DNA of 38,659 bases from Chloroflexaceae bacterium (GTDB lineage Bacteria; Chloroflexota; Chloroflexia; Chloroflexales; Chloroflexaceae), in the NCBI GenBank assembly GCA_012031225.1, contig JAAUTZ010000030.1, positions 1 to 38,659 on the forward strand, given 5' to 3'. Positions 1,603 to 35,728 of this stretch are shown here, in pieces. The translations under genes were made by a program, and so were the position numbers. How positions within the stretch are numbered: the stretch's first letter is position 1; the number at the start of each line of letters is the position of its first letter. The notes below the pieces were generated by a model. That model ran no database searches. It had not been told where the DNA came from and worked only from the letters and a program-made list of their open reading frames with translations.

Positions 1603-2240
1603 GCGATGTCGTGCTAGCACTGTATGTTGAAGGCACTACCGATGAACGGTTTTTGCCGATTGTTGTACGGCGTACTGTGGAACAACTAGTTACCCAACGC
1701 GGGCGCACAGCGACAGATATTCTCGATCCGGTTGTGTTCCGTAAATCAGACAAGGGGGGCTTTGCCGATGCCATCGCAGCAACGCGGGGCTATCACGCCC
1801 TGATTGTTCATCTCGATGCCGATGACCGCACCGCTGACAAAGCCCGCTCGATTTACGCCAGTATGAACGCTACCGTCGCGCCTCACGCGAATAATCCAAT
1901 CCTGATCCCGCTGATCCCGATCCGCGAGATGGAAGCGTGGGTACTTGCCGATGCCAATGCGCTCGAACAAATTCTTGGCAGGGGTTCTCTCAGCACATCC
2001 CATCTCAGCCAAATCTCTCCCCCACGCATGGTTGAGAGCGTGCGCGACCCGAAAGCACTCCTCGATGCGATTATTGCCGCCATCTGCTCAGCACGGCGGC
2101 GGCGTAGCATCCAACGTGCTGATGTATACGAACCGCTTGCTCGCACTGTTAAGCTAGATGTTCTTCAGAATGTACCTTCCTACCAGCAGTTTGTTGCTGA
2201 CTTGACAGCCGTTTTCTTGAAACTGCACGTTATTGTGTAG
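1599..2240 (+). CDS. DUF4276 family protein, Toprim-like
   Basis: A 213-residue protein. I place the start at ATG 1599, which overlaps the ATPase stop as ATGA, instead of at a longer upstream frame. Visible family features are [12 protein letters not shown] with Glu11, LIVHLDADD with Asp73 and Asp75, and [11 protein letters not shown] (about 108-118). The E...DxD layout after beta-strands resembles the metal site of Toprim nucleases, and the EMEAW motif is typical of DUF4276. Translational coupling to an OLD-like ATPase suggests a two-subunit version of the ATPase-Toprim proteins, comparable to the separate subunits of PARIS. Nuclease activity is inferred. The stop lies two bases from the converging gpmI stop. 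Confidence 0.85.
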
Positions 2241-2242
2241 CC

Positions 2243-3874
2243 CTACCCCACCCGCACGATCAGGCTTGCACCCGTCATCTCTGGCGCAGGCGGCAAGCCC
2301 AGCAGATCCAGCAGCGTCGGCACCACATCCGCCAGCCGCCCACCGCCCCGCAGCGTCACCGCGCCTTTGTGCAAGCCTAAGCCATCCGCTGCCACCAGTA
2401 TGCACGGCACGGGATTGGTCGTGTGCGCCGTGTGCATTCCCCCCGATTCTGGGTCTACCATCATCTCAGCATTGCCATGATCAGCGATAAGCAAAGCCGC
2501 CCCGCCGCGGGCCACAATCGCTGGCACGACCTGCCCCAATGCCGCATCCACCGTGCTACAGGCCGCGATGATCGCTTCGGGCACACCCGTATGCCCAACC
2601 ATATCTGGGTTGGCATAGTTGGCAATCAGCAAGTCGTAGGTATCGCTAGCGATGGCTTTGAGTAGCTCCTCAGTCACCCCCGCCGCGCTCATCTCTGGTT
2701 GCAGATCGTAGGTAGCCACTTTGGGCGACGGCACCAGCACCCGATCTTCGCCAGCAAACGGCTGCTCGCGCCGCCCATTGAAGAAGAAGGTAACGTGGGG
2801 GTACTTCTCGGTCTCGGCAATGTGAAACTGGCGCAACCCAGCACTGCTGACAATCTGGGCAATCGGATGCTCGACATTGTGCGGCGGGTAGGCAATCTGC
2901 ACTGGCAAGCCTTCCTCGTAGCGCGTCATCGTCACATAATACAGGTCATCCAGCATCGCCCCGCGCTGCCAGATCTGCGCTGGCATGGCTTGCCCTTCGG
3001 CTGCCTGCTGCTGGTAGTGGGCTTGCACCCGCGCATCCAGATCAGGTAACACGAAGGCTTGCGTCAGCTGCCGCCCGCGATCTGGGCGGAAGTTGGTAAA
3101 GATGATCGCATCGCCGGCCTGCACCGTCGCCACTGGCTGGCTCGCGTGTTGGATGATCGCCGGCAGCATAAACTCATCGCTGACATCAGCGGCATAGGAT
3201 GCTTCAATCGCTTCTCGCGCACTAGCAAACGGTGTGCCTACGCCATCTACCAGCGCGGCATACGCCCGTCCGGTGCGCTCCCATCGCTTATCCCGATCCA
3301 TTGCATAGTAGCGCCCGATCACGGTGGCAATCGTGCCCACGCCAATCTCGCGGATCGCCTGTTCCAATGCGGGCAGAAAATCTATCGCACTGCGCGGCAA
3401 CACATCGCGCCCATCCAGAAACAGGTGGATGTACACCTGCTCAAGGTGGTGCTGTTGGGCCAGCCGCAGCAGGGCGTGCAGGTGATCTTGGTGGGCATGC
3501 ACCCCGCCGGACCCAAACAAGCCCATCAGGTGCAGCTTGCTGCTGCGCTGCTGGGCATGCTGAATCGCCCCCACCAGTGCCGGATTGGTGAAGAAATCGC
3601 CGTCACTGATGGATTTGTTGATGCGGGTGTAATCTTGATAGACGACCAAGCCCGCCCCCAGATTCAGATGCCCAACTTCCGAGTTGCCGATCTGCCCTTC
3701 TGGTAGCCCGACATCCATGCCCGATGCACCGAGCGTCGTAAAAGGGCAGGTTGCACTCCAGTGATCTACATTGGGCGTATCCGCCAGACTCACGCCATTG
3801 GTCGGGCTTGGCTCCGCTAGCCCCCAACCATCCATAATAATCAGGGCAATCGGGCGCGGACGGGTCTCACTCAT
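2243..3874 (-). CDS. gpmI: 2,3-bisphosphoglycerate-independent phosphoglycerate mutase
   Basis: This enzyme interconverts 3- and 2-phosphoglycerate in glycolysis and gluconeogenesis using two Mn ions. At 543 residues it is slightly longer than the common 510-515. Alkaline-phosphatase superfamily motifs are complete: IMDGWG with metal ligand Asp15, IGNSEVGHLNLG with nucleophile Ser65, the phosphate-binding region with FLDGRD and NFRPDRGR, and the late ADHGNAEMM metal motif with a following HT. The start at 3874 is preceded by a strong GGAGGAGAG site. The gene stands alone; its end nearly touches that of the convergent DUF4276 gene, with no room for a separate terminator. Confidence 0.97.
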   Translation of the reverse strand: MSETRPRPIALIIMDGWGLAEPSPTNGVSLADTPNVDHWSATCPFTTLGASGMDVGLPEGQIGNSEVGHLNLGAGLVVYQDYTRINKSISDGDFFTNPALVGAIQHAQQRSSKLHLMGLFGSGGVHAHQDHLHALLRLAQQHHLEQVYIHLFLDGRDVLPRSAIDFLPALEQAIREIGVGTIATVIGRYYAMDRDKRWERTGRAYAALVDGVGTPFASAREAIEASYAADVSDEFMLPAIIQHASQPVATVQAGDAIIFTNFRPDRGRQLTQAFVLPDLDARVQAHYQQQAAEGQAMPAQIWQRGAMLDDLYYVTMTRYEEGLPVQIAYPPHNVEHPIAQIVSSAGLRQFHIAETEKYPHVTFFFNGRREQPFAGEDRVLVPSPKVATYDLQPEMSAAGVTEELLKAIASDTYDLLIANYANPDMVGHTGVPEAIIAACSTVDAALGQVVPAIVARGGAALLIADHGNAEMMVDPESGGMHTAHTTNPVPCILVAADGLGLHKGAVTLRGGGRLADVVPTLLDLLGLPPAPEMTGASLIVRVG

Positions 3875-11258: not shown

Positions 11259-11495
11259 TTAGCGCATGTGATTAGGCGCGGCGGGCAGCAGCGCAAGGTG
11301 ACGCGCACGCTTGATTGCCACTGCCAAACGACGTTGCATTTTGGCCGTGACACCGGTGCGGCGGCGGGGCATGATTTTGCCCTGTGGAGTGATGTACTTC
11401 TGGATGCGCCGAATGTCTTTGTAATCGGGCACAATTCCCAGCGTGGTAAATTCACACTCCTTCACCCTACGACGTGGACGTGATCGAAAAGCCAT
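11259..11495 (-). CDS. rpsR: 30S ribosomal protein bS18
   Basis: A 78-residue bS18 with the signature [18 protein letters not shown] followed by [17 protein letters not shown] and [13 protein letters not shown] basic N-terminus ([14 protein letters not shown]) retains the single Cys. It binds the 30S platform with bS6. In most bacteria rpsR sits in an rpsF-ssb-rpsR-rplI operon. Here it is alone: neither rpsF nor ssb lies upstream, and the downstream gene converges. AAGGAG precedes the ATG by 12 bases, and a dedicated extended -10 promoter lies about 75 bases upstream. Confidence 0.95.
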
Positions 11496-11569
11496 TGCTA
11501 CTCAATACTCCTTCATACACTCAGGTTTATCTGGATCTCCAAACATTTGCTGTTTGGTATAACCCTCTT

Positions 11570-11584
11570 AGTATACCACACCTG
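11570..11584 (-). promoter_or_regulatory. rpsR promoter, extended -10 with CAGGTGTG element
   Basis: Read on the minus strand this is CAGGTGTGGTATACT, an extended -10 (TGG-TATACT) about 70 bases before rpsR. Almost the same 15 bases precede rho (14462-14476) and lpdA (21290-21304). Confidence 0.6.
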
Positions 11585-11646
11585 TCTAGAGGCTCGTTTC
11601 GTTTGGATGTGCCCCCAGCGCAGCTTGGGCAGCTTCGGTGCCGCGC

Positions 11647-11675
11647 TTTACGAACTGCGTTATTCCTGCTATACT
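11647..11675 (+). promoter_or_regulatory. Orphan sigma70-type promoter
   Basis: TTTACG (11647-11652), a 17-base spacer and TGC-TATACT (11670-11675). It reads toward the roadblock gene 280 bases away, which has its own nearer promoter. The stretch between (11680-11820) holds only a 29-codon frame at 11698-11787 without a good ribosome site. Confidence 0.45.
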
Positions 11676-11820
11676 CAGTGATAAGACAAGTAAGCAGATG
11701 GCTATGAGGCGGCTCATTCCGTATGGGATGGATGGGTTACGAGAATTTGGGCACAGCGCGCGCACTATGCAGCACAGCGGCGATTGAGCCAGCCCCTTAC
11801 CCGGTTGGCTATCTTACTAG

Positions 11821-11849
11821 TTGCCCTCGATCAAAAAATGTAGTAGAAT
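11821..11849 (+). promoter_or_regulatory. Promoter of the roadblock gene
   Basis: TTGCCC (11821-11826), a 17-base spacer and TAGAAT (11844-11849), about 100 bases before the start codon. Confidence 0.55.
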
Positions 11850-11870
11850 AACCGCCAGATAGCGTTTTCT

Positions 11871-11890
11871 GCATTCCTGAAATGGAATGC
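11871..11890. promoter_or_regulatory. Inverted repeat in the roadblock leader
   Basis: GCATTCC, six bases, GGAATGC form a perfect 7-bp inverted repeat 22 bases after the -10 of the roadblock promoter. It is positioned like an operator or leader hairpin. Confidence 0.45.
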
Positions 11891-11951
11891 TTCACAGTGA
11901 TCTTGCACCTTGTATAGTTTCACGAGCTGACGGCCCTCAAGGAGGATATGA

Positions 11952-12320
11952 ATGGCAAGCAGAACCGAAGAGATGGTACGCCATCTTAAGGCCTTAAGTA
12001 TGAATACCCCGGATATTGAGGCATCGGCAGTGGTAAGCGTTGACGGTCTGATCATGGCTTCGGCTCTGCCAGCAGATGTAGAAGAAGATCGTGTATCGGC
12101 AATGAGTGCTGCGATGCTGTCACTGGGCGAACGTATCGCCAGTGAGCTGCGGCGTGGTCAGCTTGATCAGGTCTTTGTACGTGGCGAAGAAGGCTACGTG
12201 ATCCTTATGGCTATTGGTGAAGAAGCCGTGCTGACTGCCCTAGCGCATAGCCGTGCCAAGCTGGGCTTGGTCTTCCTCGATATGCGCCGCACTGCCAACG
12301 AGTTGATCAATCTCGTCTAA
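11952..12320 (+). CDS. Roadblock/LC7 domain protein (MglB-like)
   Basis: A 122-residue single roadblock domain. Visible features are the N-terminal helix (TEEMVRHLKALS), the central ASAVVSVDGLIMASALP strand-turn-strand, LSLGERIASELRRGQ, the strand pair VFVRGEEGYVILMAIGEEAVLTAL, and the C-terminal helix MRRTANELINLV. Such proteins regulate small Ras-like GTPases (MglA) in polarity and motility. No GTPase gene is adjacent, so its partner is elsewhere or absent. A strong AAGGAGG lies six bases before the ATG. It is monocistronic, with a hairpin terminator about 150 bases downstream. Confidence 0.93.
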   Translation: MASRTEEMVRHLKALSMNTPDIEASAVVSVDGLIMASALPADVEEDRVSAMSAAMLSLGERIASELRRGQLDQVFVRGEEGYVILMAIGEEAVLTALAHSRAKLGLVFLDMRRTANELINLV

Positions 12321-12468
12321 CGCCTACCGCCTGCGACATCGCATTCGCTCTTTGGCAATGCTATTGTACAGCTGCTAGGCTACGCCAAATAGCACACAAA
12401 TCATATCGGCTGCATGGGATTCGTGCAGCCGGATTTCTATGTTCTGCATGAAGTTCGACGAACAACCC

Positions 12469-12504
12469 AAGCCGGAACTGGCGTGATGCAGTTCCGGCTT
12501 TTGC
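12469..12504. terminator. Intrinsic terminator between roadblock and rho
   Basis: AAGCCGGAACT (12469-12479) pairs perfectly with AGTTCCGGCTT (12490-12500) around a 10-base loop, followed by TT. The flanking A and T residues allow function in both directions between these converging genes. The 12321-12468 stretch shows no convincing gene. Confidence 0.7.
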
Positions 12505-12606
12505 GCGGGGGAGAGCCACGTCGGTGATGCGGCTGATCTCGCCATGCAGGGCGAAGGGGCACTCCGTCACATCCAATCCATCTGCCTAATCTTTGCACAA
12601 CACGAC

Positions 12607-12629
12607 GAGACGTGCCGCTGGCACGTCTC
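12607..12629. repeat. Palindromic hairpin element GAGACGTGCC/GGCACGTCTC
   Basis: A perfect 10-bp stem with a GCT loop lies just beyond the rho stop codon. It has no T-tract. The core AGACGTGC...GCACGTCT recurs at 28415-28435, which suggests a dispersed palindromic element instead of a one-off terminator. Confidence 0.6.
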
Positions 12630-12660
12630 TACGAGTGGCTGATGTTCTTCTCAGACTGCG

Positions 12661-13908
12661 CTAGGTTTTGCTGAGGGTGGCAAGGAAATCGGTGTTGGTG
12701 CGGGTCTTTGCCATACGGGCCAGCACTAGCTCCGTGCCTTCATTTTCGCCCAGCATGCTGACCATGCGGCGCAGGGTCCAGACTTGGCGGAGGGCTTCGG
12801 TGCTGAGCAGCAGCTCCTCGCGGCGTGTGCCACTGCGCTGAATATCAATCGCGGGGAAGATCCGCTTCTCTGCCAGCCGCCGATCCAGATGCAGCTCCAT
12901 GTTGCCCGTACCTTTGAATTCTTCGTAGATCACATCATCCATCCGGCTGCCCGTATCCACCAGACAGGTGGCGATGATCGTGAGGCTGCCGCCATGCTCG
13001 ATGTTGCGGGCAGCACCGAAGAAGCGTTTGGGGGGATAGAGTGCGACGGGATCAATACCGCCGGAGAGCGTGCGCCCACTGGGGGGCATATCGAGGTTGT
13101 AGGCACGGGCAAGGCGCGTGATCGAGTCCATCAGGATAACGACATCTTGCCCACCTTCAACGAGCCGCTTGGCGCGTTCGAGGGTCATATCAGCGACTTT
13201 GGTGTGATCCTCGACTGGCTCATCGAAGGTGGATGAAACGACTTCACCCTTCACACTGCGGCGCATATCGGTGACTTCTTCCGGGCGTTCGCCGATCAGC
13301 AAGACCATCAGATGGGCATCGGGGTGGTTTGAAGTAATCCCATTTGCAATCGTCTTGAGCAGCAGCGTCTTACCGGCCTTGGGCGGCGAGACAATCAAGC
13401 CCCGTTGCCCCCGCCCAATCGGGGCGATCAAGTCAACAAGGCGGGTCGAGAGGATATTCGGCTCGGTCTCTAACTTAAACTGCTCATCGGGGAAAATCGG
13501 CGTAAGTTGATCGAACGACGGGCGTTTGCGGGCGGTTTCTGGATCAACGCCATTGATCATCTCCACCCGCAGCAGCGAGTAGTAGCGTTCGCTCTCTTTG
13601 GGCGGGCGCACCTGCCCCATCACCATATCGCCCGTGCGTAGCCCAAAGCGGCGAATCTGGGATTGCGAAACATACACATCGTTCTGGCCGGGTAACAGCC
13701 GACTGCCGCGCAGAAAGCCAAAGCCATCTTGAACTACATCGAGGTAGCCTTCACCGAGCGCGTTGCCAGCTTCTTCTGTTTGGGCTTGCAAGAGCTTCAC
13801 AATCAAGTCTTGCTTCTTCAGCCCGCTCACCCCTTGAATTTCGAGCTTGCGTGCCATTTCACGCAGATCGGTCAAGGTTTTTGATTCGAGTTCAGCCACA
13901 TTTACCAA
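12661..13908 (-). CDS. rho: Transcription termination factor Rho
   Basis: A hexameric RNA-DNA helicase of 415 residues, the standard length. The N-terminal Rho_N helix bundle (1-43, [18 protein letters not shown]) is followed by the cold-shock RNA-binding domain ([30 protein letters not shown]). The ATPase domain has Walker [12 protein letters not shown] (about 172-182), a [12 protein letters not shown] segment, Walker [18 protein letters not shown] and the Q-loop and R-loop region LSGGIDP. AGGAGAAG precedes the ATG. No rpmE follows. A 568-base gap lies upstream. Confidence 0.98.
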
Positions 13909-14476
13909 TGGTCTTCTCCTGCACTCTTGTCATGGTCGTTGGACTTAGCGGATATAAATATACATGCGTGCGCGTTATGCTGTTCAGTCATCATCGTTCG
14001 GGTTACAATTAGGCACGTTGTCTGTTGCTATTCATTGAGGTTGTTGTTGAAGGCCCACACGCGGCTTGCCTAGCACCACGCACATATGGCACGTTGCACG
14101 ATACGGTACAACACCGGTGCGCGGTGGCACAGTCGCACGACGGATCAGCTTTCGTTCGCGGCGTTCTTTCCTATTTGGATCTCGCTGGCGGGGATGATCC
14201 CATGACGGCTCAACCCAGCCCAATGCTCTGTCCGATCATCACCACGTTGGTGTTGAGGGGGATGCACGTTTCGGCAAGGTACGTGGGTTGCACTGCCTAT
14301 CGGCAGAACCCGTTGCAATCCTGATGCGCTGCACGCCAACCGCACAATGGAGGCTCTATTTCAGCTCAGCCCACAGGCACGATCACGCAAGCAATGTACG
14401 TTCTGATGTACGAGTGCAATATTCTGATCTGGTGCAGCAGAGGATACAATTTCCAATCCTTAGTATAGCACACCTG
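13909..14476. other. Long non-coding stretch upstream of rho
   Basis: This is 568 bases without a convincing gene; the frames present lack ribosome sites and family resemblance. Near its far end is a minus-strand extended -10. A nearer minus-strand candidate is TGAACA (13981-13986, read on minus) with an 18-base spacer and TATATT (13957-13962). Several short palindromes occur, for example CACCA-acg-TGGTG on the minus strand. It may be a long rho leader or hold a small RNA. Nothing is recognised. Confidence 0.4.
14462..14476 (-). promoter_or_regulatory. Minus-strand extended -10 promoter with CAGGTGTG element
   Basis: Read on the minus strand this is CAGGTGTGCTATACT, one base different from the rpsR promoter element. 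It would transcribe the non-coding stretch toward rho. It sits right at the end of tatD. Confidence 0.5.
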
Positions 14477-30772: not shown

Positions 30773-32445
30773 ACGTTGAGTTCCTCTTTGTCTATAAATT
30801 CAAGCGTGGCAACCGTCGGTTGAGCCGGTTGAGCCGGTTGGGTGGGCTGCTCCGGCAAATTGGGCTGATCCTCGTGCAACTCACGGGGGCCCGGCACCAC
30901 CTTGCGTGCGCCAAATTCCATATCGGCGAGCATCTCTGGGCGATCTGTCGCAAGCGTGGCAATCTGTTCGCGGGTCAGGATGCGCGTATCATCAAAGCCC
31001 AGATCTACCGTTGTCTGCAAGCCCTTCTGCTGCACGCGCCCAATATCATAGAAGCGGCGCGTAAAGGTGGTGACGGCGAAGGCCTTCAGACAGCCGAGCA
31101 TATAACGCCGCTTGTACGGATCGCGGATAAACGGGTAGGCAAGGGTCTTGCGGCTGTAGAAGCGGGCATAGCACTTGAGCACATGCTTCAGCACCTCTTC
31201 GCGCTCCATGTCATCCGGCTTCATAATCGGGGTGACGAAGTTGTAGCGCGAGTAGTCCCGCACCTCAACCCGATCCCCTAGCTCCTCGAATAGCTCAGCA
31301 AAGGGCCACGGCGTATACATCGTCCAGTTGGCCATATCGGGATCCCAATCCATCGTGAGCCGGAACGTCTCCTCAATGCTTTCGGGCGTTTCGTTCTCCA
31401 TGCCCATAATGAACTGCGCCTCTGCCACGATGCCATGCTTCTTGAGCAGTTGGATCGCCTTCTTATTCTGCTCAATCGTGGTCTCTTTGCGGAAGCGATC
31501 AAGGTTCATCTGGCTGGCGGCTTCGGTGCCCAGCGAGACATGCACCATCCCCGCTTTGCGATACAGCGCGAGTTCGGCTTCGTCGCGCAGAATGTCGGTC
31601 ACCCGGGTATTGATGCCCCACTGCACTTTGTCGGGCAAGCCGCGATCAATCAGCTCTTGGCACAGGGCGATAAACTTCTTCTTGTTGATCGTTGGTTCTT
31701 CGTCGGCAAGGATGAAGAAGCCGACCCCATGATCACGCACCAGCGTCTCAATCTCATCCACAAATTTCTTGGGCGAGCGGGTGCGGTAGCGTCGCCAGAA
31801 CTTCCACTGCGAGCAGAAGCGGCAGGTGAACGGGCAGCCGCGTGCGAAGTTGGGCACGGCAAGGCGTGCGCCTAGCGGAATGTAGATGTACTTGCTCCAA
31901 TCAAGAATGCTCCAATCAGGGGTGAGGTCATCGAGATTGGCAATTGGCGGGTGCGCGGGGGTGGCCATCACTTGGTCTTGCTCAATATAGGCTAGCCCCT
32001 TAATGTTGCCGCGCTCTTCCAAATCTGTGCCTGCGGCGATAGCCTGCATCAGATTGACGACGATCTCCTCGCCCTCGCCCCGCACGATGTAGTCAATCCA
32101 CGGGGCTTCGGTCAGCACTTGGGCATACATAAAGGTGGGGTGGATGCCGCCCAGAATGAGCTTGGCATTGGGCTGGGCTTCGCGGGCAAGGCGCAGCGTA
32201 TCTTGGGCTTTGTAGATCATGGGGGTGATGGCCGTTGCGAGAACCACGTCCGGCTTATTGGCGCGGATGATCTCGGCAAGTTGCTCATCGGCTATGTCAT
32301 CCGTCATGGCATCTACAAAGCGCATGTTGGTAAAGCCAACATGTTTGAGTGCGCCGCCAATATAGGCGACCCAACTGGGCGGCCAGCTACCGGCGATTTC
32401 GGCTCCACCGGCGTGATAATTGGGCTGGATCATTAAGATACGCAT
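30769..32445 (-). CDS. bchE: Anaerobic Mg-protoporphyrin IX monomethyl ester cyclase BchE
   Basis: A B12-binding radical SAM enzyme that forms the isocyclic ring of bacteriochlorophyll using water instead of O2. At 558 residues it is typical. The N-terminal cobalamin-binding domain starts MRILMIQPNYHAGGAEIAG, a near match to proteobacterial BchE. LGGIHPTFMY and DYIVRGEGEE follow. The radical SAM motif is ARGCPFTCRFCSQWKFW with Cys204, Cys208 and Cys211. FILADEEPTINKKKF and NWTMYTPWPF are strongly BchE-specific. The C-terminus adds a Pro/Gln tail (QPTQPAQPAQPT) from short DNA repeats. It overlaps bchJ upstream (13 bases) and hemN downstream (4 bases). Confidence 0.97.
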   Translation of the reverse strand: MRILMIQPNYHAGGAEIAGSWPPSWVAYIGGALKHVGFTNMRFVDAMTDDIADEQLAEIIRANKPDVVLATAITPMIYKAQDTLRLAREAQPNAKLILGGIHPTFMYAQVLTEAPWIDYIVRGEGEEIVVNLMQAIAAGTDLEERGNIKGLAYIEQDQVMATPAHPPIANLDDLTPDWSILDWSKYIYIPLGARLAVPNFARGCPFTCRFCSQWKFWRRYRTRSPKKFVDEIETLVRDHGVGFFILADEEPTINKKKFIALCQELIDRGLPDKVQWGINTRVTDILRDEAELALYRKAGMVHVSLGTEAASQMNLDRFRKETTIEQNKKAIQLLKKHGIVAEAQFIMGMENETPESIEETFRLTMDWDPDMANWTMYTPWPFAELFEELGDRVEVRDYSRYNFVTPIMKPDDMEREEVLKHVLKCYARFYSRKTLAYPFIRDPYKRRYMLGCLKAFAVTTFTRRFYDIGRVQQKGLQTTVDLGFDDTRILTREQIATLATDRPEMLADMEFGARKVVPGPRELHEDQPNLPEQPTQPAQPAQPTVATLEFIDKEELNV

Positions 32446-33080
32446 GAGGTCTGTTCCTTTCTGGCGGGCATCAAATGCAACCTATATAGGCATTTCACAT
32501 AGCTTTCGGCAGGCGCGGCGGGGGCTTCCCATGCACCTAGTTCCACCTGACAAGCAGGGGTGATCAGGACTTGAAAGAGGCGGCGGAAGGTTCCCGCGTA
32601 GAATGTCGCCACTGGCGCACGCGCTATCGGCGGCAGGCTCAGGTGCAGGGTGGGGGTAGGGGCGGAGAGAATGCCAGCGGTGCTGAAGCTGCCACTCCCC
32701 GCGAATGTCCACGCATGCTGCTTGATCGCCACCAGAAATAGCCACAGCCCAGCCCGTTTGGGCAAGGGGCGCACTACTGCTTGGAAGGGGCGCGGAATGC
32801 GATGAGCGAGCAGGTAGTCGGCGGTCTGTTTGCCTGCCTGCTCTAGCATGGCGGCAGTCGGTGCAGGACCGAGTTGTTGCTCTAGCTCCGCGACAAGCGC
32901 GTGAAACAGCGTCTCTGGAACCATCGTTTCGGGGAGTGCCTCTGGCAGGTGGCGCAGGGCGGGGTGGCTACTCTGGTGCAGCAGGGCAGTGGTGGCACTG
33001 TTGCCATAGCGTTGCTGCAACACGCGCACGCTCTGGATGATTGCATTGGGGCCAATCTGTGGTTCGGTTGCGGTTTGCAT
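32433..33080 (-). CDS. bchJ: Bacteriochlorophyll biosynthesis protein BchJ (V4R domain)
   Basis: A 215-residue protein matching BchJ in order: IGPNAIIQSVRVLQ, PETMVPETLFHALV, AGKQTADYLLAHRIP, LPKRAGLWLFLVAIKQHAWTF and the AGSGSFST motif. The C-terminal V4R small-molecule-binding domain follows, ending CLYRLHL. BchJ was first described as a 4-vinyl (now 8-vinyl) reductase; current evidence favours an accessory, substrate-delivery role. It is the first gene of the bchJ-bchE-hemN operon. Its stop lies 13 bases inside bchE, suggesting translational coupling. An extended -10 lies 100 bases upstream. Confidence 0.9.
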   Translation of the reverse strand: MQTATEPQIGPNAIIQSVRVLQQRYGNSATTALLHQSSHPALRHLPEALPETMVPETLFHALVAELEQQLGPAPTAAMLEQAGKQTADYLLAHRIPRPFQAVVRPLPKRAGLWLFLVAIKQHAWTFAGSGSFSTAGILSAPTPTLHLSLPPIARAPVATFYAGTFRRLFQVLITPACQVELGAWEAPAAPAESYVKCLYRLHLMPARKEQTSCVS

Positions 33081-33181
33081 ACGTTTTCCATCTGAGCTGT
33101 AGGTAGCACTCTGTACTACAGGGCCACAGCGATCAATGTATCACCAGAATTACGCGCTACTTCAACTACTCTGCTACGTGT

Positions 33182-33190
33182 ATTGTAGCA
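33182..33190 (-). promoter_or_regulatory. Extended -10 promoter of the bch operon
   Basis: Read on the minus strand this is TGC plus TACAAT (33182-33187), about 100 bases before bchJ. No consensus -35 is evident, so an activator or redox control is possible. Confidence 0.5.
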
Positions 33191-33306
33191 TGCCCACTGC
33201 ACTTGCGCGGTGTGCATGCGATAACCATGAAAGATTATTTCTTCACTCAAGGCTTGCCAGAATCAGGGGCATGTCATTATAATGAGAAGAAGGAGAAATG
33301 TTGCCA

Positions 33307-33798
33307 ATGGCGAATTTGCTGATAGACCGCAGAGTCCAGTTGCAGCACCAGCAGACACAGTATCAGCACCTCGAACAACTCCACTGCACGCTGATGCGTC
33401 AGGCAGCGACTGCCCCCGCAGAACAACCAACACTCGTGCAACGGATGGCCCTGCTCCGGGTGCAAATCGAACTCCCGCTCCCAGCATTGCGCTTGCCCGT
33501 GTTGCCGACGGTGGCGCAGTGGGGCGCGTTGCTCAGTCCTGACCAGCTGGAGTCAATCCTCGACAAGTATGAGTATGTGTGGAAGATTGAGCGGCGGCTG
33601 GATCAACTGCAACAGGCGATCTATGCCCACGTCCCGTTAGCCGATGTGCCCGTGTTCTGGTTGCTCTGGGCATGCCGCCTAGAGTTGCAGAGTATGCAGC
33701 TGCGCGAACAGCTTGTGCAGCACTTCAATGAAATCCATGCAAAAACCTATGCACCAACACCGACTCTATCAGGATTGAAAGTACGCGAACGAGGATGA
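33307..33798 (+). CDS. Hypothetical protein encoded ahead of the caspase gene
   Basis: A 163-residue helical, Gln/Leu-rich protein. I start at ATG 33307 because AAGGAG is then about 11 bases away; an ATG at 33298 is too close to it. The N-terminal half (RRVQLQHQQTQYQHLEQLH) looks like a coiled coil. The middle has QWGALLSPDQLESILDKYEYVWKIERRL, split by a helix break. The C-terminal part has PVFWLLWACRLELQSMQL. I recognise no family. It ends six bases before the caspase start, so the two are co-translated. It is probably an adaptor or partner of the protease. Confidence 0.75.
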   Translation: MANLLIDRRVQLQHQQTQYQHLEQLHCTLMRQAATAPAEQPTLVQRMALLRVQIELPLPALRLPVLPTVAQWGALLSPDQLESILDKYEYVWKIERRLDQLQQAIYAHVPLADVPVFWLLWACRLELQSMQLREQLVQHFNEIHAKTYAPTPTLSGLKVRERG

Positions 33799-33804
33799 TA
33801 AGCT

Positions 33805-34800
33805 ATGCCATTCACACAGGGCTACGCGCTGGTGGTAGGGGTGGGAGCCGATCTGCCCGCTACCGTGCAAGATGCAGAACAGGTTGCAGCATTCCTGCGT
33901 GATCCGGCTCGCTGCGCCTACCCGCCTGAACAGGTGACGGTGCTGACCAACGCGCAGGCAAGCCGCGCTAGCGTGCGGGCCGGCTTGGCCCAATTGGCGC
34001 AGGATGCCCGCACCGATCCACAGGCGACGGTGGTGGTGTACCTCTCCGGACACGGGGTGGCTACGCCGCACTTTGCCTTCCTGACGCACGGCTATGATCT
34101 CCAGAACCTGCCCGCCACAGCCATCGCTGAGGCTGAACTCAGTGCCGCGCTCCGGGCCATTCCCGCCCAACGCCTGCTGGTGCTGCTCGATTGTTGCCAC
34201 GCGGGGGGGCAAGTCACGCTGAAGTCGCCGGCTGGAGTGGCATTGTCCCCGGCTCTGCCTGCTACGGTGCTAACCGAATTGGGGCAGGGTGGTGGGCGCG
34301 TAGTGCTAGCTTCCTCACGGCAGGATGAGCGATCATACATTATGCCGGGGGATCCCCTCAGCCTGTTCACCAAGACGCTGCTTGAAGCCCTCGCGGGCTA
34401 CGGCACTGCCGAGCAAGATGGCTACGCCCGAGTGCTGGATGTCGCCGGCTATGTGGCTCGGCTGGTGCCTAGCCGCTATCCGCAACAGCACCCGATCATC
34501 TCTGCCAGCCACGCCGATAACTTTGCGCTTGCCTACTATGCTGGCGGGCAATCTCAGCCTAAAGCGGTGGCGTGGGATGCACAGCAACAACAGCCGATCC
34601 TGCTTGATACGCGCAATACCGATGTGCGTGCGTGGCAAACCCAGCTCAAAAACTACGAAGAGACGCTCCGCCTGTACGAAGAACGCTTCAGCCAATACGT
34701 CAATCAAATAGACATTCCCCTGCAACAGGTGCGCGACAAGCGGGGTATTGAGCAGAAGGTGCGCGAACTGCGCCAAAAGCTGGGCTTGCCGGAAGTGTAA
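33805..34800 (+). CDS. Caspase-like (peptidase C14) protease with coiled-coil tail
   Basis: A 331-residue bacterial caspase homologue. The p20-like domain (about 1-240) begins GYALVVGVGADLPATVQDAEQ. Catalytic His83 sits in VVYLSGHG and the catalytic Cys131 in LVLLDCCHAGG. ASSRQDERSY contributes the S1-pocket region. A C-terminal helical extension (about 268-331: WQTQLKNYEETLRLYEER, RDKRGIEQKVRELRQKLGL) looks like a coiled coil and has no enzymatic motif. Bacterial caspases often act in regulated cell death or phage response, activated through associated domains. It lies between a helical hypothetical protein (6 bases) and DUF4058 (21 bases). Confidence 0.9.
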   Translation: MPFTQGYALVVGVGADLPATVQDAEQVAAFLRDPARCAYPPEQVTVLTNAQASRASVRAGLAQLAQDARTDPQATVVVYLSGHGVATPHFAFLTHGYDLQNLPATAIAEAELSAALRAIPAQRLLVLLDCCHAGGQVTLKSPAGVALSPALPATVLTELGQGGGRVVLASSRQDERSYIMPGDPLSLFTKTLLEALAGYGTAEQDGYARVLDVAGYVARLVPSRYPQQHPIISASHADNFALAYYAGGQSQPKAVAWDAQQQQPILLDTRNTDVRAWQTQLKNYEETLRLYEERFSQYVNQIDIPLQQVRDKRGIEQKVRELRQKLGLPEV

Positions 34801-34821
34801 GCTGGATCGTGGGGAGAAGCA

Positions 34822-35613
34822 ATGCCGACTCCGTTTCCGGGCATGGACCCCTATCTCGAAGCGGCGGGGCTGTGGACCAATGTTCACAGTAGCGTGATTA
34901 TCGCCTTGCGCGATGAGCTTGCGCCACGCCTGCGCCCACGCTACTACGTAGCGGTTGAGGAGCGCACGCTACATTTGAGTAGTGATGACATGCCCATTGC
35001 GGCTCGTCCTGATCTTGCGATCATTGAGCGAAGCTCGCCAGTACCAGCAGCTGTAGCAGGTGGTGTAGTGCAGGGTGCAACAGCAGAACAAGTGGTAACG
35101 GTTGAAGTACCGCTCTCGGATGAAGTCCGGGAACTCTTTTTGGAGATTCGCACTGCTGCTAGCGAACAAGTCATTACGGTCATTGAACTACTCTCCCCCA
35201 CCAACAAAACCAACCCTACCGGTCGCGCTCAGTATGAGCGGAAACGGCTGGCATTGTTGGGTAGCCAGACCCACCTTGTTGAGCTTGATCTGCTACGGGC
35301 TGGCCCCCCGATGCAAGTACGTGGCTACGATCAGCCTAATGCGTATCGGATTCTCGTGAGCCGGGCTACGCACCGTCCCAAAGCTGATCTGCTCCCGTTT
35401 GACGTGCGCCAGCCCATCCCTCCCTTTCAGCTTCCGTTGGAGGCGGGCGATCCTGAGCCAGTTATTGCGTTGACCCCGCTCATGCATGCCTTGTATGATC
35501 GGGCGGGGTATGATCTGCGGATAGACTACCGCACCAACCCACCACCGCCAACCCTTACGCCAGATGATGCAGCGTGGCTTGATGCGCTGCTGCGTGCGGC
35601 GGGGCTACGCTAA
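34822..35613 (+). CDS. DUF4058 family protein
   Basis: A 263-residue protein with the DUF4058 opening PTPFPGMDPYLEAAGLW, then VHSSVIIALRDELAPRLRPRYYVAVEER. Conserved acidic and basic motifs follow: ARPDLAII (about 59-66), VIELLSPTNKTNP (about 120-132), YERKRLALLG and VELDLLRAG. The Asp ... Glu-x-LSP ... K/R ... ExD pattern resembles Uma2-type PD-(D/E)XK folds, though I know of no demonstrated activity. GGGGAGAA precedes the ATG. It is the third gene of the caspase operon. DUF4058 genes are common in Chloroflexota and cyanobacteria without clear roles. Confidence 0.9.
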   Translation: MPTPFPGMDPYLEAAGLWTNVHSSVIIALRDELAPRLRPRYYVAVEERTLHLSSDDMPIAARPDLAIIERSSPVPAAVAGGVVQGATAEQVVTVEVPLSDEVRELFLEIRTAASEQVITVIELLSPTNKTNPTGRAQYERKRLALLGSQTHLVELDLLRAGPPMQVRGYDQPNAYRILVSRATHRPKADLLPFDVRQPIPPFQLPLEAGDPEPVIALTPLMHALYDRAGYDLRIDYRTNPPPPTLTPDDAAWLDALLRAAGLR

Positions 35614-35728
35614 GCTGTAGCCCCACCACCTGAACTGTGCAAAGCCTGTGCAGATTGATTGACAGTTTCAGCAATTCTCCCTACACTACTTACAAGATAC
35701 CCAAACTGGGCCCATGAAAGAGGCGTAT

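What the first reader, a model, noticed from the sequence alone, without database searches (positions are those of the whole stretch)
33307..35613. Three-gene caspase operon with an unknown helical protein and DUF4058
A caspase-like protease with intact His83 and Cys131 and a coiled-coil tail is coupled (6 and 21 base gaps) to an unrecognised helical protein and a DUF4058 protein. Bacterial caspases often execute abortive responses once a sensor is triggered. The first gene could be an adaptor pairing with the coiled-coil tail and the third a second effector or sensor.
Basis: partly seen in the sequence, partly recalled or inferred. Interest (0 to 1): 0.65.

Follow-up and report, generated by a model that had tools for sequence, protein, structure and literature searches.

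The report
Caspase carrying a shared hairpin adaptor
A filamentous-bacterium (Chloroflexales) gene pair makes a caspase-type protease whose tail is a small two-helix plug that the same genome also attaches to at least six other, mostly sensor-like, proteins, suggesting a cell-suicide protease that different sensors can recruit through one common connector.

Summary
The three genes are real and spaced as described. The caspase (33805-34800) has an intact His83/Cys131 dyad and a confidently modelled caspase fold. Its 'coiled-coil tail' is not private to this operon. It is a ~58-residue helical hairpin (ESLxLIxERxAxYVxxTDVPLQLxxD...) that recurs in six other proteins of this genome (NACHT, nSTAND, NB-ARC, FGE-sulfatase, TCAD2, beta-helix). 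Relatives in 28 of 158 class genomes are fused to CHAT, TIR, SIR2, NB-ARC, WD40 and EAD2. No Pfam or NCBIfam model covers it. It behaves like an effector-associated adaptor domain (EAD), so the best reading is a caspase effector recruited in trans by hairpin-bearing sensor/switch proteins. The first gene is a genus-restricted helical protein, kept with the caspase under purifying selection in the only other species found; it is probably a dedicated partner, but it is not detectably a hairpin by sequence and no contact could be shown. DUF4058 is dispensable: in the sister species it is a decayed remnant while the other two genes stay intact, and no other caspase locus in the class has one nearby. 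So the core is a pair plus a genome-wide adaptor network, not a trio. Toxicity, recruitment and defence are inferred.

The parts
33254..33283 (+). Promoter-like site TTGCCA-18-TATAAT (11 of 12) in front of gene 1
   Evidence: largely kept in the sister species. Consensus match only.
33307..33798 (+). Gene 1 (g1): 163-aa all-helical protein, no known family; two predicted helical hairpins (helices 3-38/40-55 and 81-111/119-151, numbered from the 33298 start)
   Evidence: only relative found is in the sister species, 84% identity
33805..34800 (+). Caspase-type peptidase (C14), 331 aa, TAA-GCT-ATG coupling to g1
34051..34053 (+). Catalytic His83
34195..34197 (+). Catalytic Cys131 (motif LLDCCHAG)
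34612..34788 (+). C-terminal helical-hairpin adaptor module of the caspase (aa 270-328), shared with six other proteins of the genome
34822..35613 (+). DUF4058 gene; ancestral to the genus but a decayed remnant in the sister species; probably not part of the core
35659..35687 (+). Promoter-like site TTGACA-17-TACACT before the next gene (glycosyltransferase, 35714), suggesting that the operon ends with DUF4058

Best explanation
The locus encodes a caspase effector of an EAD-like (death-domain-like) adaptor network. Shown: an intact caspase core; a C-terminal two-helix hairpin belonging to a homologous family of small modules; seven hairpin copies in this genome attached to different partners (NACHT, nSTAND, NB-ARC, FGE-sulfatase, TCAD2-containing, beta-helix, caspase); relatives elsewhere C-terminal to effector domains (CHAT, TIR, SIR2) or N-terminal to STAND/WD40 proteins. 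Inferred: when a hairpin-bearing STAND or sensor protein detects a threat, hairpin-hairpin contacts recruit and cluster the caspase; proximity activates it; it cleaves cellular proteins (probably after Arg/Lys, as metacaspase-type enzymes with DxCH motifs do) and causes dormancy or death of the filament cell. Gene 1, co-expressed and co-conserved, most likely binds the caspase directly as a chaperone, inhibitor or second adaptor. DUF4058 is an optional hitch-hiker.
For: Own-genome recurrence of the tail in other proteins. Fusions identified by Pfam. Hairpin family homology between the DVPLQ and YG branches: score 45.6 against at most 22.5 in 150 heptad-preserving shuffles. Lineage-specific expansion, often 2-12 copies per genome among 28 of 158 class genomes, with this genus's copies in one clade with a related genus, 100/98 support. 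In other genera, separate hairpin genes lie within 5 kb of caspase genes 4 times against 0.15 expected, flanking the caspase on both sides in G046. g1-caspase pair in conserved synteny with purifying selection. Caspase dyad invariant; caspase fold matches metacaspase 4, GSU0716 and MALT1. EAD principle as defined in PMC7159879 and PMC8195603.
Against: No interaction, proteolysis or toxicity evidence. The nearest caspase relative (G040, 55% identity) lacks the tail. The hairpin proteins of this genome are scattered, not beside the caspase operon. g1 is not significantly hairpin-like by sequence. Helical hairpins could instead simply dimerise or serve as generic scaffolding. The hairpin was modelled at only pLDDT 41-61.
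Confidence: 0.6

Rival explanations
1. Self-contained two-gene toxin-antitoxin-like module: g1 is an inhibitor or adaptor that binds the hairpin tail of the caspase, and the other hairpin proteins are unrelated users of a generic dimerisation motif.
For: Pair conserved with 3-6 bp spacing and in-frame TAA-GCT/GCA-ATG junction in both species; both under purifying selection; g1 restricted to the same genomes as this caspase version.
Against: The tail shares specific sequence with the six other modules, including near-invariant L, R, P, L and Q positions that generic coiled coils would not keep; only two species hold the pair, so its independence is hard to judge.
Confidence: 0.25
2. Three-gene defence operon in which DUF4058 is a second effector (its PDLAI...ELLSPTNK motifs look like PD-(D/E)XK Uma2-type enzymes) and all three act together.
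For: Gaps of 6 and 21 bases, no convincing terminator or promoter between the genes; remnants show that DUF4058 was ancestrally present in the sister species too.
Against: DUF4058 is decayed in the sister while g1 and caspase are intact; three other DUF4058 copies in each genome lie elsewhere, and none of the other caspase loci in the class is near a listed DUF4058.
Confidence: 0.07
3. Housekeeping orthocaspase used in stress or morphogenesis, with the hairpin serving to place it on cell structures, not in defence.
For: Hairpins also fused to PASTA, carboxypeptidase-regulatory-like and beta-helix proteins with no defence label; the locus sits between ordinary metabolic genes, not in a defence island.
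Against: Most informative fusions are STAND, CHAT, TIR and SIR2, typical of conflict systems.
Confidence: 0.2

Closest known systems
Effector-associated domain (EAD) coupled conflict systems (Kaur et al. 2020, PMC7159879; 2021, PMC8195603)
   Same: Small non-enzymatic helical domain, N- or C-terminal, repeated in one genome on effectors (caspase, TIR, CHAT, SIR2) and on STAND/WD40 proteins, with lineage-specific versions.
   Different: Two-helix hairpin of about 58 aa with a DVPLQ or YG..P turn; no Pfam EAD model matches significantly (EAD9 only at E=0.048 in 3 of 12 members, and no relation by profile comparison); not tied to MoxR-vWA or EACC1 here.
EACC1-caspase two-gene system
   Same: Caspase domain scores E=8e-30 to NCBIfam caspase_w_EACC1, and a small gene precedes it.
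   Different: 103.8 bits against a cut-off of 140; the small gene is all-helical and has no EACC1 match.
bDLD3-caspase plus AP-ATPase operons (bacterial death-like domains)
   Same: Caspase joined to a helical adaptor that is shared with a STAND NTPase.
   Different: Two helices instead of the six-helix death fold; the STAND partners lie elsewhere in the genome.
Metacaspases/orthocaspases (Arabidopsis metacaspase 4, GSU0716)
   Same: Caspase fold and His-Cys dyad.
   Different: C-terminal hairpin adaptor and linked gene 1.

Membership tests
Caspase (peptidase C14) | Caspase-fold domain over the family cut-off | tested here: met
   PF00656 53.7 bits against 21.4; Foldseek E about 1e-6 to metacaspase 4 and MALT1
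Caspase (peptidase C14) | Catalytic His-Cys dyad | tested here: met
   His83 and Cys131 invariant in 20 sequences
Effector-associated domain (functional class) | Small non-enzymatic domain | tested here: met
   About 58 aa, helical hairpin, no Pfam or NCBIfam enzyme match
Effector-associated domain (functional class) | Several copies per genome, fused to effectors and to core or signalling proteins | tested here: met
   Seven copies here with seven architectures; TIR, CHAT, SIR2, NB-ARC and EAD2 fusions elsewhere
Effector-associated domain (functional class) | Copy fused to a core component encoded in an adjacent gene | tested here: not met
   No hairpin detected in g1 or DUF4058; other copies lie on other contigs. 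In G046 and G047 hairpin genes are next to caspases. The definition says 'often', so this lowers but does not exclude membership.
Effector-associated domain (functional class) | Copies closer to lineage-specific versions | tested here: met
   Tree of 31 hairpins: G000/G022/G019 clade 100/98, G019 separate 96/93; only 57 columns
Effector-associated domain (functional class) | Homotypic binding | not testable with these tools
   No complex scores or coordinates available
EAD9 (PF19962) | Match to the family model | tested here: not met
   Best E=0.048, 3 of 12 members; no match in own genome; profile comparison score 13
EACC1-caspase system | EACC1 gene plus caspase over the cut-off | tested here: not met
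   Caspase 103.8 bits against 140; g1 no match
Conserved three-gene caspase/g1/DUF4058 operon | All three intact and linked in other genomes | tested here: not met
   Sister species keeps g1 and caspase, DUF4058 is a remnant; no DUF4058 near other caspases

The most novel reading that the evidence does not exclude
An undescribed family of two-helix hairpin adaptors acts as the death-domain equivalent of filamentous Chloroflexota: one caspase effector, paired with a genus-specific regulator, is shared by several different STAND and receptor-like proteins through the same connector.
Probability: 0.4. Interest if true: 0.72.

Novelty: new variant of a known kind. Interest (0 to 1): 0.55.

Why it matters
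If right, it adds a simple two-helix connector, absent from Pfam, to the known bacterial adaptors that join caspases, TIR, SIR2 and CHAT effectors to sensor ATPases, and it gives a compact system (one caspase, seven hairpins) for testing whether several sensors share one executioner. It also turns a 'coiled-coil tail' into a searchable marker for uncharacterised conflict proteins in Chloroflexota.

Tried and rejected
g1 as a hairpin copy: an eye alignment (aa 96-139, turn VPLADVP against VSPTDVPL) agreed with the predicted turn, but HMM scores were at most 1 bit, profile comparison was reached by 10 of 200 shuffles, and the broader profile lost it; kept as a hint only. g1 fused N-terminally to the G040 caspase: p 0.12-0.21, rejected. 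g1 related to the small genes beside caspases in G046/G047: p 0.13-0.98, rejected. EAD9 identity of the hairpin: rejected. Fusion model of g1+caspase (stop codons read through, the two genes being in one frame) gave per-residue confidence only, so no contact could be read. g1 relatives in viral contigs and plasmids: none. Hairpin consensus in plasmids: none. DUF4058 literature and solved structures: none.

Full report
What is there. The window belongs to a 4.2-Mb draft genome (contig 50 of 205) whose nearest named relative in the collections is an uncultured Chloroflexales bacterium. On the + strand, three ORFs follow one another: g1 (33298 or 33307 to 33798), a caspase (33805-34800) and a DUF4058 gene (34822-35613), with gaps of 6 and 21 bases. 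AAGGAG at 33290-33295 favours the 33307 start. A sigma-70-like site TTGCCA-18-TATAAT ends at 33283, and another promoter-like site stands before the following glycosyltransferase gene. Pfam finds Peptidase_C14 and DUF4058 and nothing on g1; PADLOC recognises only the caspase.

The caspase. His83 and Cys131 are invariant among 20 homologues. A model built on those homologues gives pLDDT around 90 over most of the core, and its closest solved structures are metacaspase 4, GSU0716 and MALT1. Beyond about residue 250 it has a linker and two helices, 272-300 and 306-326.

The tail is shared. Searching the genome with the caspase returned four other proteins matching only residues 246-327. A profile of those five copies found seven in this genome, four in the sister species G022, three in another genus of the family (G019) and weak matches elsewhere. 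The consensus is SL..Q......LRLI.ER.A.YV..TDVPLQL..D. Pfam labels the remainder of the other six proteins (or, for NACHT, the overlapping next frame of a fragmentary contig) as NACHT, FGE-sulfatase, nSTAND1, TCAD2, beta-helix and NB-ARC. In the sister there are also PASTA and beta-helix versions, and in G019 a WD40 version. The hairpin itself matches no Pfam or NCBIfam family convincingly.

A wider family. Profile comparison links the two branches with E=1.6e-9 and score 45.6; shuffles that keep heptad position never exceeded 22.5. The joint profile A6 hits 28 of 158 genomes of the class and 24 of 400 drawn from the phylum, often with several copies per genome, up to 12. A few of the weakest hits look spurious on inspection (L158, L159). 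Pfam on twenty hit proteins gave CHAT (three), TIR, SIR2, NB-ARC (three), other AAA/STAND domains, EAD2 and an Ig-like/carboxypeptidase-regulatory protein. The hairpin is C-terminal in TIR, SIR2 and two of the CHAT proteins, as in our caspase, and N-terminal in the NB-ARC ones. In G046 two separate hairpin genes flank a caspase, and in G047 and G045 one lies within 0.5 and 4.4 kb; four such pairs against 0.15 expected under uniform placement. A 31-row tree (57 columns, so coarse) puts all DVPLQ hairpins of this genus and G019 on one branch, 100/98, with G019's own copies apart, 96/93. These are the traits by which EADs were defined (PMC7159879, PMC8195603), except that no cognate copy is encoded next to the caspase here.

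Gene 1. Among 158 class genomes only G022 has it, 84% identical; nothing more appeared in genome, viral or plasmid collections. In G022 it again precedes the caspase directly, in the same chromosomal place. dN/dS is 0.20 for g1, 0.165 for the caspase and 0.16 for the tail. Residues 110-143 of g1 are identical in both species. The model of g1 is poor (pLDDT 52) but suggests two helical hairpins. I thought the second might be a diverged copy of the tail; the statistics do not support it.

DUF4058. In G022 the space behind the caspase holds sequence matching the first ~75 and the last ~200 bases of the region at 78-82% identity, with the middle lost and the frame broken. The gene was thus present in the common ancestor and has decayed in one lineage while g1 and caspase stayed intact. 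DUF4058 is common in the class (42 of 158 genomes), usually away from caspases: comparing the listed matches, no other caspase is near one (the closest is 90 kb away, in G032).

Interpretation. Shown: intact caspase core, adaptor-like shared hairpin, conserved g1-caspase pair, dispensable DUF4058. Inferred: homotypic hairpin contacts recruit the caspase to STAND or receptor-like proteins; activation by clustering; cell arrest or death; g1 as dedicated regulator. The caspase relative in G040 at 55% identity without the tail suggests that the tail was acquired or lost as a cassette, as expected of an adaptor.

Limits. No binding, cleavage or toxicity data; the structure tool gives no coordinates; g1 has only two sequences; the supplementary tables of the EAD papers and the CATRA paper (PMC7685563) could not be read, so an earlier description of this hairpin cannot be excluded.

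Noticed in passing
window 33081-33306: The divergent intergenic region is strongly conserved with the sister species (only a few changes in about 90 bases around 33140-33230) and holds an inverted repeat GCATGCCCACTGC (33188-33200) / GCGGTGTGCATGC (33207-33219), 11 of 13 paired, plus CTGTAG...CTACAG near 33098-33122: possible operators.
   Followed up: partly
window 32433-33080 (- strand): Divergent 215-aa protein without a Pfam family, dN/dS 0.075 against the sister species, followed by a radical-SAM gene and a coproporphyrinogen dehydrogenase-like gene.
   Followed up: no
L097 (G000:C178) 369-1325 and 2072-3401: The hairpin-nSTAND gene lies about 0.75 kb from what looks like a CARF-type CRISPR accessory nuclease and a Cmr6-like fragment on the same strand: a possible link of the hairpin network to type III CRISPR (read by eye).
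   Followed up: no
L094 (G000:C4) 11367-14154: The hairpin-FGE-sulfatase gene is followed by a C5-cytosine methyltransferase-like gene and a gene that may be its restriction partner; the FGE C-terminus has an N/S/Y/D-rich stretch reminiscent of diversified C-lectin regions, with no reverse transcriptase seen nearby.
   Followed up: no
L139 / L141 (G047:C10, G045:C31): Standalone 133-147 aa proteins made of two tandem hairpins, a natural bivalent adaptor.
   Followed up: no
L153 (G014:C48) 1171-1704: Hairpin fused to EAD2 in a 178-aa protein with no other domain: a bridge between the new hairpin and a known EAD.
   Followed up: no
window 34822-35613: DUF4058 carries ARPDLAI and VIELLSPTNK motifs that resemble Uma2-type PD-(D/E)XK proteins; no solved structure by sequence.
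   Followed up: partly
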